NCBI GenBank assembly: GCA_029262055.1
Contig: JAJDAD010000098.1
Span: 1 to 44,815 of the forward strand
Length of the DNA: 44,815 bases
DNA from: Candidatus Zhuqueibacterota bacterium
GTDB lineage: Bacteria; Zhuqueibacterota; Zhuqueibacteria; Oceanimicrobiales; Oceanimicrobiaceae
Direction of reading: 5' to 3'
The position numbers and the translations under genes were made by a program. Positions 34,045 through 44,815 of the stretch are shown here, piece after piece. Below the pieces are notes generated by a model that saw only the letters and a program-made list of their open reading frames with translations, did not search any database and was not told the origin of the DNA. Position 1 is the stretch's first letter, and each line of letters starts with the position of its first letter.

Positions 34045-36252
<2,208 letters not shown>

Positions 36253-36746: not shown

Positions 36747-39092
36747 TCACTTAAGCAAGATAAGTCGAATGGTCTCGTGATATCCGCCAGCAACTATTTG
36801 TGCGAAATAAATTCCACTAGAAATAGCTCGCCCGGTTTCCTTCCTCCCATCCCAAATCACACGATAAATACCTGGAGTTTGCTGTTCATCCATCAAAGTT
36901 CTTATTTCTTGCCCATAAAGATTATATATTTTCAAAACGACACGACTTGCTTTGGGAATGGAATATTCAATTTGTGTTGACGGATTAAATGGATTTGGGT
37001 AGTTTTGTGACAAACTGAACTCCTCAATTGAACCACCAGAGTTCATATCCTCAACAGAAGTAATCTGCTCAAAAGGCAAGGCCCCCATATCTGTTCTGGT
37101 TCCATCTGAGTCAAGTTCTGAGTTGGGATGGCCTGCATCTATGCACGGAGAATTTTCTTGGAGATGGTAATCACCGTCTGAAGCATCAACATACATAGGA
37201 GCTTCAGAAATATCACCTTCCATTGAAAGTATGCTGCCGTTTCCGGTATCGCAGTAATTACCACCTAAATTATTCCATAAATCGTTATACCTACTTGTTG
37301 GAAATCCATTTGATGTTGCACGGATCCCGGAGCCACCACAGTTTCCCGCAACTCTAAAGGTATTTGTAATAATGTTGTTGGTTATCATAGGATTTGAATT
37401 ACCACAATTTATTCCAGCATCTCCGTTGTTGTCTATGGTATTATGGTCAATTGTTGCTATCATATTCTGATCGTTAGCATTTCTGTTATCAACTCCATAC
37501 CTGGAGTTATCGTAAATTATGTTGCGTCTTATTATTGATGACGCGAAATCGGTAATGATTCCATCAATGTTATCATGAATAGTATTGCCTTCAATCAGTG
37601 GCGTACCGGATGCGACGTGAATGCCCTCATGAACAATATCACTAATCACATTATCTTTAATGGTTGGAGAGCCGATGTCTACGCTAATTCCCGAACGGTC
37701 ACATTTTGCAATTAGAGAATTAGATATTCTTGCGGAGGTATTTTCAAATGAAATTCCAACACGCGCAAATCTAATTTTGCAATACTTAAACTCACTCTCA
37801 TTCGATCCACTATCTTTCATTAAGATTCTATCCCAATCTAAAGGATTAGGATTCGACCTATTTGATGTAAAGAAAATAGAATCTGTGACGGTTCCTACCG
37901 CAGTTATTTTACCAAAGACATTTAATGAAGAAGAGCTATCAAACCTGACCTCTACCCCTGGAGCAATAATTAGAGATATGCCGTCTTGGACATTTATAGA
38001 ACCGACAATAATATAAGGACTACCTGAAATATCCCATACCGTATTTTGGCTAATATCATTGGTAATAAGCGTACCTTGCTGAAATGGAATGGCACCCATG
38101 TCAGGTCTAGTTCCGTCTGGATCAAGCGGACTATTGGGGTCGCCTGCGTCGATACAAGGGGAATCTGGTTGGAGGCTGTAATCTCGATTAGCTTGATCTA
38201 TAAATTCAGGGTCAGCAGAAATATCACCAACCCCAGGAGAAACTCCAAAATAATTTGTACCATTATTCCAAATGTCATTGTAAGAAAGTGCTGGTGTAGC
38301 CCCGTTCACAGCTCTGATCCCGATTTCATTTTGATTGGTAATAATATTATTGGAAATTGTAGGCGATTGATTGTCGCAATTAATGGCTGTTCCATTTTCA
38401 TCTAAGGTATTATTCAGAATAGTAGACCCCGTGCTTGAATTGATTCCATATCTTGTATTTCCATAGATAATATTGTGGTCGATTGTTGGTGTGCCATTAG
38501 TCAACACATTAATGCCATCTTGCTCATTATCGTGCAAAATGTTGTTACTGATTATTGGTGTACCGACTCCAACAAAGACTGATGCGCCTTTAGTAGAATG
38601 AATATTGTTCTTTTCTACTATAGCGGAACCCCCATCTATTTGAACGGCAGAAAAGGTAGTATTACTCATTTCACAATTCTGAATTGTGGGTGATGCCTCC
38701 CTTATCCACACTGCAAATGTTGCATAAGAAAAATTAGCGTATTCAATCAAAGAAGTAGCTCCACTTGAGGTGTCGATTCTAACGGATCCCCAATCCCCAA
38801 TATTTGGAGTGGATTTGTTTGAGGTAAAGATAATCGGATTAGAGTCTTCGCCCTGGGCCATGATGGTACCCTTTACAATCAAACTAGTGGATGAATCAAA
38901 TTTAACTGTAGCACCCGGTTCAACTGTCAAAGATATGCCCTCATTTACAAAAATCGTGTTTAAGATAACATAGGGACTACCAGACAAATCCCATACAGTG
39001 TTTTCGCTAATATCATTTGTGATACTTGTTTGAGCTATTGCCTCCGTTGATAGGGTGATACAAGACAAGGCAAGGAAGAAAATCCTTTTCAT
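36747..39092 (-). CDS. Two-module beta-helix protein with type IX secretion sorting domain
   Basis: The 781-aa protein is secreted: signal peptide (1-20), then right-handed parallel beta-helix repeats (ISNNI-x-x-N and IDHNIIYGNTRYGI patterns, often seen in glycan-active proteins). Two similar modules of about 340 residues start at ITNDISENTVWDLSGSPY and ITNDISQNTVWDISGSPY and each ends with SPCIDAG-x-PNS and RxDMGA(I/L)PF. The C-terminus (about 700-781) is a Por/T9SS sorting domain: FSLSQNYPNPFNPSTQIEYS, VVLKIYNLYGQEIRTL, SGIYFAQIVAGG. No catalytic residues can be assigned. The gene is AT-rich. Confidence 0.93.
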   Translation of the reverse strand: MKRIFFLALSCITLSTEAIAQTSITNDISENTVWDLSGSPYVILNTIFVNEGISLTVEPGATVKFDSSTSLIVKGTIMAQGEDSNPIIFTSNKSTPNIGDWGSVRIDTSSGATSLIEYANFSYATFAVWIREASPTIQNCEMSNTTFSAVQIDGGSAIVEKNNIHSTKGASVFVGVGTPIISNNILHDNEQDGINVLTNGTPTIDHNIIYGNTRYGINSSTGSTILNNTLDENGTAINCDNQSPTISNNIITNQNEIGIRAVNGATPALSYNDIWNNGTNYFGVSPGVGDISADPEFIDQANRDYSLQPDSPCIDAGDPNSPLDPDGTRPDMGAIPFQQGTLITNDISQNTVWDISGSPYIIVGSINVQDGISLIIAPGVEVRFDSSSSLNVFGKITAVGTVTDSIFFTSNRSNPNPLDWDRILMKDSGSNESEFKYCKIRFARVGISFENTSARISNSLIAKCDRSGISVDIGSPTIKDNVISDIVHEGIHVASGTPLIEGNTIHDNIDGIITDFASSIIRRNIIYDNSRYGVDNRNANDQNMIATIDHNTIDNNGDAGINCGNSNPMITNNIITNTFRVAGNCGGSGIRATSNGFPTSRYNDLWNNLGGNYCDTGNGSILSMEGDISEAPMYVDASDGDYHLQENSPCIDAGHPNSELDSDGTRTDMGALPFEQITSVEDMNSGGSIEEFSLSQNYPNPFNPSTQIEYSIPKASRVVLKIYNLYGQEIRTLMDEQQTPGIYRVIWDGRKETGRAISSGIYFAQIVAGGYHETIRLILLK

Positions 39093-42037: not shown

Positions 42038-43702
42038 TCAGAAGGTCATCCCGGCTTCCACAAACAACCGGCCCGCCTTTTGGTTCTCACCAAAGAAACG
42101 GCGGTAGCCAAGCCGGCTGAACCAGCGCCGGTTAAGCCGGAAAGTCCCGTCGCCTTCGACCCAGTTGTTGCGCGTCTCGCGGTTGCCGGTTTGATAGATG
42201 TAGCTGCCCCCAGCCAGACTCAGGCTAAGTCCGCGCAGCGGGCTAAATCGCAGGCTCACGCTTGGCCGGTAAGCCTGGGTAAACATCGTGTTGAAATAGG
42301 ACAAGCGGGCATTGAGCGTCGCCGTGCTGTTCAGGATGCGCTGCACACTCAACCCGGTTGCAAACGAGGTCGTATTTTTGACATCTCCTCCCCGGAAACG
42401 AATGCCAAACGTACCGGACCACCGAATACGACCTGGAAAACGCAAAACAACTCCGGTCCGTACGCCTTTGCGCGTGGCTTCGTCAAACAGGCTGTCCGGG
42501 ATTGAGCGCGTCTCAAAGATCCGCACGTTTTTCCGCGCATCGTAAGACAGATTGAGCGAAATAGCTTTCACCGGCTGGAAATTTGTGCTCAGAAAAAAAT
42601 TGCTGAGCTGGGTGCTGCTCCGGCCCGCGTCACTTTTCCAACCGCGATTCAGGTCAACTTCGATGGTTTGATAGGCGGAAAAGATTGAGCCGTGCGAAAA
42701 GGTGTTCTGCAGATAGACAAACTCCCTGCTGACCTCGCCTTTGTTGTATCTACCGGAGAAAGCTGCCGTGCTAGCAAAGCGGCGTTTGCCGTACTCGCCC
42801 TTTTCGTAACTCAAGAACAGGCCTAACTTTTGCTCCGCTGTCTGCAAACCGGACGTGCGCAGGCTCGGTTGCGTGCCGCCAGCTACCCCAAGCCGCCAGG
42901 CAGGCGCGACTTTGTAGGAAAAAAGCGCGCCGTCGATGTACCCCAAACCACGAATACGATTTGAGGCCACACGGCCGATCCCGAATTCAACATTGCTGTT
43001 CTTCGCGCTGGAAACGACGCCGAATTCATAAACATTGTGCCGCCACTCGTCAGCGGAAATCACGCTGCTGACATTGTCCCGGCTGAATGAGCGCGAACGC
43101 CAGCGCACTTTCAGAGTGACGGGTAGACCCATGAACTGCTGGACTTTGAGCCTGCTGCGAACTCCCATTTGGTAGAAATCGCGATTGCCTGAAGTGCCGT
43201 CTGTTTGCGAGAGCGCCTGCAGGCTGACACTGCCTCTGACGCGGTTATTGGCGCTGCGAGTCTGTCGACGCTTCCTCGGTTTCCGGGGCTGTACTTTCGA
43301 TTTGGTGAGTAACGATTTCTTTTTGGTCTGTTGCCCAGGCCCGATTTGTCCACCCGCCACCTCTTCCTTCCGAAAAAATCCTTCAACGCGGTCGCCGGTT
43401 TTTATCGGCTCTACCTGTGAAACAGCGGTACACGAGGCCGAGAGACGGGCGACACTGGTAACGACCAGCGTTGCGATGCCCCGGCCCCTGCGTACGACCC
43501 GCAAGCTGTCACCGCGCTGAACGCCGCGTTCCGTACCAAGATTAATATAGAAGGCATTGCTGGAGACGTACTTCACTTCTCCGACCTGTCGTTTGCCGGT
43601 TTGGCCGAAGGCTGACACCTGGAAGGTCAGCAAGGACAGGAGACCCGCCAGAAAAACAACCGGGGCCCTCTTAGCTCGTTTCCATTCCTCTGGATTCCCC
43701 AT
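42038..43702 (-). CDS. Outer-membrane beta-barrel with basic linker, 554 aa
   Basis: The start chosen is the ATG at 43702, because the protein then opens with a signal peptide (about 10-33, APVVFLAGLLSLLTFQVSAFGQ); the frame is open further upstream only because it overlaps the cytochrome gene. Residues about 37-120 form a small beta domain (VGEVKYVSSNAFYINLGTER), about 125-150 is a basic linker rich in Lys and Arg, and the rest alternates polar and aromatic residues in barrel-like strands, ending in GRLFVEAGMTF with a terminal Phe as in outer-membrane proteins. It follows the multihaem cytochrome by about 60 bp, so the two are likely co-transcribed. A porin-like conduit is inferred. Confidence 0.75.
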   Translation of the reverse strand: MGNPEEWKRAKRAPVVFLAGLLSLLTFQVSAFGQTGKRQVGEVKYVSSNAFYINLGTERGVQRGDSLRVVRRGRGIATLVVTSVARLSASCTAVSQVEPIKTGDRVEGFFRKEEVAGGQIGPGQQTKKKSLLTKSKVQPRKPRKRRQTRSANNRVRGSVSLQALSQTDGTSGNRDFYQMGVRSRLKVQQFMGLPVTLKVRWRSRSFSRDNVSSVISADEWRHNVYEFGVVSSAKNSNVEFGIGRVASNRIRGLGYIDGALFSYKVAPAWRLGVAGGTQPSLRTSGLQTAEQKLGLFLSYEKGEYGKRRFASTAAFSGRYNKGEVSREFVYLQNTFSHGSIFSAYQTIEVDLNRGWKSDAGRSSTQLSNFFLSTNFQPVKAISLNLSYDARKNVRIFETRSIPDSLFDEATRKGVRTGVVLRFPGRIRWSGTFGIRFRGGDVKNTTSFATGLSVQRILNSTATLNARLSYFNTMFTQAYRPSVSLRFSPLRGLSLSLAGGSYIYQTGNRETRNNWVEGDGTFRLNRRWFSRLGYRRFFGENQKAGRLFVEAGMTF

Positions 43703-43760
43703 GAAAACATTCGGGAATGACAGGGACTTAAGATGTTTCTGCGGCTTTTTGCAACAAAAG

Positions 43761-44815
43761 CTAGTTCGTACTATCATCTGCTTTTCCATTTGGGTGACAA
43801 TCAAAGCATGCACTGCTGGCGTAAACATAGTCCAAGATCTCACCAAGGTGTTTGTCGTCCATCCTTTGCTGACTGTGGTCATGACAGACCAGGCAGGTGA
43901 ATTCTTTGCGATTATCCGGGTTCTTGTGGCAGGTCGTACATGTGTCCCATTCGCCGGCATGCGCCCCTGAAAAAATCGGAAAGAACTGATTGTCGTGCTC
44001 ACGGAACTCGCCCTTTTGACTATCCGGGTGGCACAACAAGCAATCATTACTTAGGTAAACGTAACCAGTGATACCGTTGTGTTTTAAGTCCATTTCGCTT
44101 TGGCGATGCTCGTGGCAAACCAGACAAGTGAATTCCTTGCGGTTGCTCGGGTTTACGTGGCAGGTGGTGCATTCATCCCACGAACCAGCATGCGCGCCAA
44201 CGAAAATCGGAAAGAACTGATTGTCGTGCTCACGGAACTCGCCCTTCTCGCTGTTCGGGTGGCAGAGCAGGCAGTCGCCGCTTTGATAGACGTAGCCGCT
44301 GATGCCGTTGTGCTTGGCATCCATTTCACTCTGGCGATGTTCATGACAGACCAGACAGGTGAACTCTTTGCGGTTACTCGGGTTTTCGTGACAGGTGGTG
44401 CATTCATCCCATGATCCGGCGTGCGCTCCCACAAAAATCGGGAAGAACTGGTTGTCATGCTCACGGAACTCGCCCTTTTGACTATCCGGATGGCAGAGCA
44501 AGCAATCGCCGCTTTGGTAGGCATAGCCAGCGATGCCGTTATGTTTGGCATCCATTTCACTCTGGCGGTGCTCGTGGCACACCAGGCAGGTGAACTCTTT
44601 GCGGTTGCTCGGATTTTCGTGGCAGGTGGTGCAGTCATCCCACGAACCGGCATGCGCGCCAACGAAAATCGGAAAGAACTGAGTGTCGTGCTCGCGGAAT
44701 TCGCCTCTCTGGCTGTTTGGGTGGCACAGCAGGCAGTCACCACTGAGGTAAGCATAACCGGGGATACCACTGTGTTTCAGGTTCATTTCGTCCTGGCGAT
44801 GTTCATGGCAGACCA
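43761..44815 (-). CDS. Multihaem c-type cytochrome of triheme repeats, partial
   Basis: The frame is open to the right edge, so the N-terminus lies outside the window. About 350 residues are visible and contain 13 complete CxxCH haem motifs, plus a cut one at the edge. They are arranged in repeats of 77 aa, each with CLLCH, CTTCH and CLVCH, separated by FFPIF(V/S)GAHAG, NRKEFTC and KHNGI-x-GY-x-Y segments with additional His that could be distal haem ligands. The end is CFDCHPNGKADD. Three haems per about 75 residues recalls c7-type domains, as in Geobacter dodecahaem proteins built from c7 domains. It is expected to act outside the inner membrane in electron transfer. Confidence 0.88.
   Translation of the reverse strand, partial: VCHEHRQDEMNLKHSGIPGYAYLSGDCLLCHPNSQRGEFREHDTQFFPIFVGAHAGSWDDCTTCHENPSNRKEFTCLVCHEHRQSEMDAKHNGIAGYAYQSGDCLLCHPDSQKGEFREHDNQFFPIFVGAHAGSWDECTTCHENPSNRKEFTCLVCHEHRQSEMDAKHNGISGYVYQSGDCLLCHPNSEKGEFREHDNQFFPIFVGAHAGSWDECTTCHVNPSNRKEFTCLVCHEHRQSEMDLKHNGITGYVYLSNDCLLCHPDSQKGEFREHDNQFFPIFSGAHAGEWDTCTTCHKNPDNRKEFTCLVCHDHSQQRMDDKHLGEILDYVYASSACFDCHPNGKADDSTN
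43880..44815 (-). repeat. Tandem 231-bp coding repeats of the cytochrome
   Basis: Units of 231 bp are repeated in register four times in the window; for example the GCCGCTTTG-x-TAG landmark recurs at about 44277 and 44508. The units are highly similar also at DNA level (about 85-90% by eye), which implies recent expansion or homogenisation and possible copy-number variation beyond the window edge. Confidence 0.9.

What the first reader, a model, noticed from the sequence alone, without database searches (positions are those of the whole stretch)
42038..44815. Cytochrome made of 77-aa triheme repeats next to an outer-membrane barrel
Seen: at least four near-identical repeats with three CxxCH each plus a last CxxCH, followed after about 60 bp by a barrel protein with signal peptide and terminal Phe. 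Known: chains of triheme c7 domains (Geobacter dodecahaem type) form haem wires, and porin-cytochrome complexes carry electrons across the outer membrane. Inferred: a haem chain of tunable length coupled to a pore, a possible extracellular electron transfer conduit of a type I do not recognise.
Basis: partly seen in the sequence, partly recalled or inferred. Interest (0 to 1): 0.78.

Follow-up and report, generated by a model that had tools for sequence, protein, structure and literature searches.

The report
Length-variable haem wire beside outer-membrane barrel
A bacterium of candidate phylum KSB1 carries a five-gene set that looks like an electrical line from inside the cell to its surface, with one section built of near-identical three-haem blocks whose number varies between species; it resembles a published but untested conduit called PCC3, here found in many other phyla.

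Summary
The window ends inside a c-type cytochrome gene (T): 13 CxxCH in 350 aa, in 77-aa triheme units. A gene for a 22-strand barrel (D) starts 58 bp downstream. The upstream half lies at the end of another contig of the same genome: flavoprotein A, membrane protein B, 20-haem cytochrome C and the start of T, ending just before the repeats. The same A-B-C-T-D genes occur in KSB1, Zixibacteria, Calditrichota, Ignavibacteria, Bacteroidota (including isolates), Acidobacteria and Gemmatimonadota. T is a fixed 7-haem head, k triheme modules (k = 0-17) and a fixed 3-haem cap, so haem counts are 3n+1 in 56 of 62 counted proteins. k differs within one genus (Maribellus, 1 versus 12). B carries the published inner-membrane-protein signature of the putative porin-cytochrome conduits PCC3/PCC4 (55 of 57 versus 0 of 4042 other ORFs), and the parts list matches PCC3. 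Best reading: a PCC3-like electron conduit with an added NAD(P)-type flavoprotein, outside the mostly proteobacterial range reported for PCC3. Function, direction and surface exposure are unproven. The Geobacter triheme 'nanowire' family test was not met. New variant of a known, functionally untested kind.

The parts
43761..44813 (-). T, 3' part of the repeat cytochrome gene (350 aa, 13 complete CxxCH), cut by the contig end
44583..44813 (-). 77-aa triheme unit 1 (first CxxCH cut by contig end)
44352..44582 (-). 77-aa triheme unit 2
44121..44351 (-). 77-aa triheme unit 3
43890..44120 (-). 77-aa triheme unit 4, merging into the cap
43764..44012 (-). C-terminal 3-haem cap, conserved in other phyla (haem spacing usually 34-35, 15, 26-29)
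42038..43702 (-). D, outer-membrane barrel gene (554 aa), signal peptide, terminal Phe
43373..43594 (-). N-terminal beta domain of D (residues 37-110), weakly FlgT_C-like
42041..43243 (-). 22-strand barrel part of D (residues 154-554), no plug domain in the model

Best explanation
The window holds the distal end of a five-gene operon for a PCC3-like porin-cytochrome electron conduit. Inferred path: NAD(P)H or another donor to A (membrane-anchored Fe-S flavoprotein), to B (five-helix cytochrome b with two probable b haems, at the quinone pool), to C (20-haem cytochrome that could cross the periplasm), to T held in or at the barrel D, to an extracellular redox partner. T is a multihaem wire made of a fixed 7-haem head, a variable number of triheme modules and a fixed 3-haem cap; evolution sets its length by gaining or losing whole modules. 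Shown by sequence: the operon, its conservation, the head-module-cap design, the B signature and the barrel model. Inferred: haem loading, electron flow, direction, surface exposure, and that C45 and C112 are one locus.
For: Operon halves on two contig ends of one genome, barrel single-copy there; T followed by D in 61 of 78 loci, commonest orders BACTD and ABCTD. CxxCH count 3n+1 in 56 of 62 proteins, 10 to 61; near-constant head and cap haem spacings; head found at the expected end in 30 of 30 held-out proteins and cap in 27 of 30. At least one non-motif His per CxxCH (1.02-1.47) and almost no other Cys, as bis-His haems need and zinc sites would not. B signature WX3HX13H / SGXXG / WX3HX13H, published for PCC3 and PCC4 inner-membrane proteins (PMC5566968), in 55 of 57 B proteins and 0 of 4042 other ORFs. 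T profile matches MtrF, NrfB, MtrC and MtrA in the PDB. D modelled as a 22-strand barrel without plug. PF01578 haem-delivery genes over cut-off in the genome.
Against: No experiment. The AlphaFold2 model of T is poor (pLDDT 60, pTM 0.25), so haem packing and linearity are untested. No direct sequence comparison with proteobacterial PCC3 proteins was possible. D has no match to any known conduit porin family. A is not part of the published PCC3 set. One carrier, Emticicia oligotrophica, is to my knowledge an aerobe with no reported extracellular electron transfer.
Confidence: 0.75

Rival explanations
1. T is a periplasmic electron store (capacitor) of variable size; the barrel only anchors it or has another role.
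For: Type I signal peptide and no lipid anchor on T in the own genome; nothing here shows surface exposure; extra haems as a capacitor is considered for PCC3 (PMC10734462).
Against: C is already a long periplasmic-type cytochrome of nearly constant size (17-26 CxxCH, mostly 20) while only T varies; T lies next to D almost always; fixed head and cap suggest two docking ends.
Confidence: 0.2
2. A Geobacter GSU1996-type chain of triheme c7 domains that happens to sit near a porin.
For: Triheme repeats; Pfam Cytochrome_C7 above cut-off.
Against: TIGR04257 absent from the window part and at 16.8 bits against a cut-off of 40 in a full-length relative, while TIGR03508 (DmsE/MtrA) reaches E 1e-15 though below its own cut-off; the barrel is linked across phyla.
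Confidence: 0.05
3. The operon works inward, for electron uptake from Fe(II), minerals or partner cells, feeding quinone and NAD(P)+ (a variant of the best explanation that differs in direction only).
For: PCC3 was found in Fe(II) oxidisers and is modelled as an inward path (PMC5566968); a flavoprotein with a pyridine-nucleotide fold could make NAD(P)H.
Against: Most carriers listed are not known Fe(II) oxidisers (own knowledge); direction cannot be read from sequence.
Confidence: 0.3

Closest known systems
PCC3 porin-cytochrome gene cluster (Sideroxydans, Leptothrix and others; PMC5566968, PMC10734462)
   Same: Four parts: barrel, long periplasmic cytochrome (21-27 haems there, 17-26 and mostly 20 here), second cytochrome with very variable haem number and repeats (10-63 there, 10-61 here), ~300-aa inner-membrane protein with two WX3HX13H and SGXXG.
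   Different: Here an added Fe-S flavoprotein A; other phyla; triheme modules between fixed head and cap counted exactly; barrel with an N-terminal extra domain. Direct homology of the barrels was not tested.
MtrCAB / MtoAB / PioAB
   Same: Multihaem cytochrome with an outer-membrane barrel; T and C are distantly similar to MtrA/DmsE (TIGR03508) and MtrC/MtrF.
   Different: No member of the D family matches the MtrB_PioB Pfam model; 22 rather than 26 strands (the latter from own knowledge); far more haems; no lipidated MtrC seen.
Geobacter GSU1996-type triheme c7 chains (TIGR04257 nanowire_3heme)
   Same: Chains of triheme units; broad Cytochrome_C7 similarity.
   Different: Below the family cut-off; part of a porin operon; fixed unlike ends.
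OmbB-OmaB-OmcB of Geobacter
   Same: Porin-cytochrome idea; OmbB-like porins are reported in Ignavibacteria (PMC7399161).
   Different: Relation of D to OmbB not tested; gene content differs.

Membership tests
PCC3 | ~300-aa inner-membrane protein with two WX3HX13H motifs and SGXXG | tested here: met
   55 of 57 B proteins; 0 of 4042 other ORFs; residues invariant in A5. The signature is shared with PCC4.
PCC3 | long periplasmic multihaem cytochrome (21-27 haems) | tested here: met
   C has mostly 20 CxxCH (range 17-26), signal peptide; slightly below the published range
PCC3 | second multihaem cytochrome with repeats and variable haem number | tested here: met
   T, 10-61 CxxCH
PCC3 | that second cytochrome is extracellular | not testable with these tools
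   only a signal peptide can be read; no localisation data
PCC3 | outer-membrane barrel in the cluster | tested here: met
   D model with 22 barrel strands, pLDDT 86; adjacent in 61 of 78 loci
PCC3 | sequence homology of all parts to Sideroxydans or Leptothrix PCC3 proteins | not testable with these tools
   no named proteobacterial PCC3 sequences could be fetched; the plasmid search gave none
MtrCAB/PioAB | MtrB_PioB-family barrel | tested here: not met
   no PF11854 match in any of 47 D proteins at E 0.01
Geobacter triheme nanowire domain (TIGR04257) | score above the curated cut-off (40 bits) | tested here: not met
   no match in the window part; 16.8 bits in L063 T
Class III / c7-related cytochromes c (Pfam) | PF02085 or PF14522 above gathering score | tested here: met
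   42.6 and 37.6 bits

The most novel reading that the evidence does not exclude
A conduit family separate from PCC3 that links cytoplasmic NAD(P)H directly to the cell surface through a modular haem wire, whose reach is set by the number of near-identical triheme modules between a fixed anchor head and a fixed tip cap, with two module types expanded in different lineages.
Probability: 0.3. Interest if true: 0.75.

Novelty: new variant of a known kind. Interest (0 to 1): 0.55.

Why it matters
Multihaem wires are studied mainly in Geobacter and Shewanella. This operon places a conduit-like system in many phyla, including culturable Bacteroidota (Maribellus, Mariniphaga, Mangrovibacterium, Emticicia), most not known for electron exchange. 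Natural variants from 10 to 61 haems between constant ends give a ready series for testing how wire length affects electron transfer.

Tried and rejected
AlphaFold2 of T (A3): pLDDT 60, not used for geometry. D against PDB sequences: nothing; fold comparison gives generic barrels, 22-strand TonB-dependent receptors and 24-strand ushers; no Mtr-type barrel was among the rows shown, which excludes nothing. Searches for proteobacterial PCC3 on plasmids returned only an Emticicia copy of the operon (B, then A, C, T and D) and B-like proteins near hydrogenase or other cytochromes. Zinc binding rejected: one extra His per CxxCH, Cys almost only in CxxCH. Papers on KSB1, Ignavibacteria, Prolixibacteraceae and Melioribacter did not describe this operon in the titles, abstracts and passages read; supplementary tables could not be read.

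Full report
Observation. The open frame at 43761-44813 (-) runs off the end of the contig and encodes 350 aa with 13 complete CxxCH. Shuffled copies average 0.19 CxxCH, never more than 4. Four units of exactly 77 aa are 82-94% identical as protein and 76-84% as DNA, with 18-31 synonymous codon differences per pair, so they are not very recent copies. The barrel gene begins 58 bp downstream at 43702 and encodes 554 aa with a signal peptide and terminal Phe. Pfam finds class III and c7-related cytochrome domains above cut-off.

The missing half. The window is contig C112 of a 5.7 Mb draft genome. A search with the 20-haem cytochrome of a relative finds one strong match in the own genome, at the end of contig C45. 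That contig end reads A (462 aa, two Fe-S motifs plus FAD/NAD(P) fold), B (290 aa), C (20 CxxCH), then a signal peptide and seven CxxCH of a further cytochrome that stops just where the repeats begin in relatives. The barrel family is single-copy in the genome. That both ends are one locus is inferred. Counting by module phase, the protein would have at least 22 CxxCH. Two relatives (G004, G048) also show contigs that break inside this gene.

Relatives. The repeat occurs in 24 of 147 genomes sampled. A scan of 84,980 species genomes gives 78 loci, the closest from candidate division KSB1, others from Zixibacteria, Calditrichota, Ignavibacteria, Bacteroidota, Acidobacteria, Gemmatimonadota, Rhodothermales and more. 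Profiles built from KSB1 and related proteins label A in 61, B in 52, C in 58, T in 77 and D in 63 of the 78 loci, many of them short contigs; T is directly followed by D 61 times; commonest orders BACTD (25) and ABCTD (8). A plasmid of Emticicia oligotrophica DSM 17448 carries B, A, C, T and D in a row (T with 40 CxxCH) with generic annotations.

Design of T. In 62 ORFs counted as T beside D, the CxxCH count ranges from 10 to 61 and is 3n+1 in 56. Of the six exceptions, at least one (L137) looks like a mis-assigned C, and two rows (L042 and L074) are the same contig and hold a degenerate CxxxCH. Haem spacings show a 7-haem head (32-37, 15-20, 16, 34-35, 16-21, 20-26), a core of triads, and a 3-haem cap (usually 34-35, 15, 26-29). 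In a split-half test the head profile hit the expected end in 30 of 30 held-out proteins and the cap in 27 of 30. So T is head + k modules + cap with k from 0 to 17. k varies among near relatives: Maribellus luteus k=1, Maribellus sediminis k=12, at 68% identity of B. In KSB1 family f1 and some related genomes the modules resemble the cap (77-aa type); in others they resemble the head (about 72-75 aa). Repeats within one protein are more alike (0.64-0.89) than repeats compared between proteins, by clear margins in most pairs, as expected from duplication with homogenisation.

Haem binding. Every T protein has at least one non-motif His per CxxCH (1.02 to 1.47) and almost no Cys outside the motifs, which fits bis-His c haems. 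Haem-delivery genes (PF01578) are present. The structure model of T is too poor to use.

Barrel. AlphaFold2 on 47 aligned D proteins gives mean pLDDT 86: a small N-terminal beta domain (37-110) and 22 barrel strands (154-554), with no plug. Fold matches are generic large barrels, best Z 18.9 with rmsd 5.7 over 345 residues.

What it is. B carries two WX3HX13H motifs and SGXXG as invariant residues, in 55 of 57 proteins and 0 of 4042 other ORFs. This is the signature described for the inner-membrane proteins of PCC3 and PCC4 by He et al. (PMC5566968). PCC3 consists of a porin, a periplasmic cytochrome of 21-27 haems, an extracellular cytochrome of very variable haem number with repeats, and this protein (PMC5566968; PMC10734462). 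All four kinds of part are here. PCC3 was reported mostly from Proteobacteria and is functionally unverified (PMC12442390). A is additional; PCC4 subgroup II has a different Fe-S gene. Direct homology to proteobacterial PCC3 proteins could not be tested.

How it likely works. Electrons pass between NAD(P)H or quinones (A, B), the periplasm-crossing C and the wire T at the barrel D. MtrA, with 10 haems, is about 100 angstrom long (PMC5566968), so by simple scaling C would be about 20 nm and T 10-60 nm; the longest T could not lie straight across a periplasm. With C of nearly constant size and T variable, T at or beyond the outer membrane is the better reading. It is inference.

Verdict. It is a PCC3-like variant with a clear modular length rule, in phyla where I found no report of it.

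Noticed in passing
L058:4675-6003 (own genome, contig C45): Flavoprotein A: in the second Fe-S motif the usual second Cys is an invariant His (CxGHxxCxxxCP) in all 18 aligned proteins; in the first motif that position is mostly not Cys. Possible unusual cluster ligation.
   Followed up: partly
L143:7914-16610 (Emticicia oligotrophica plasmid pEMTOL02): The operon genes (B, A, C, T with 40 CxxCH, D) lie on a plasmid of a cultured Bacteroidota species, right after a ccsA gene.
   Followed up: partly
   Followed up: partly
window 36747-39092 (-): 781-aa right-handed beta-helix protein with a C-terminal FlgD-Ig-like sorting-type tail; probably secreted.
   Followed up: no
window 34045-36225 (-): Catalase-peroxidase type gene (PF00141).
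   Followed up: no
window 43373-43594 (-): The N-terminal domain of the barrel protein weakly resembles FlgT_C (7 of 47 relatives match at E<0.01); possible periplasmic docking domain.
   Followed up: partly
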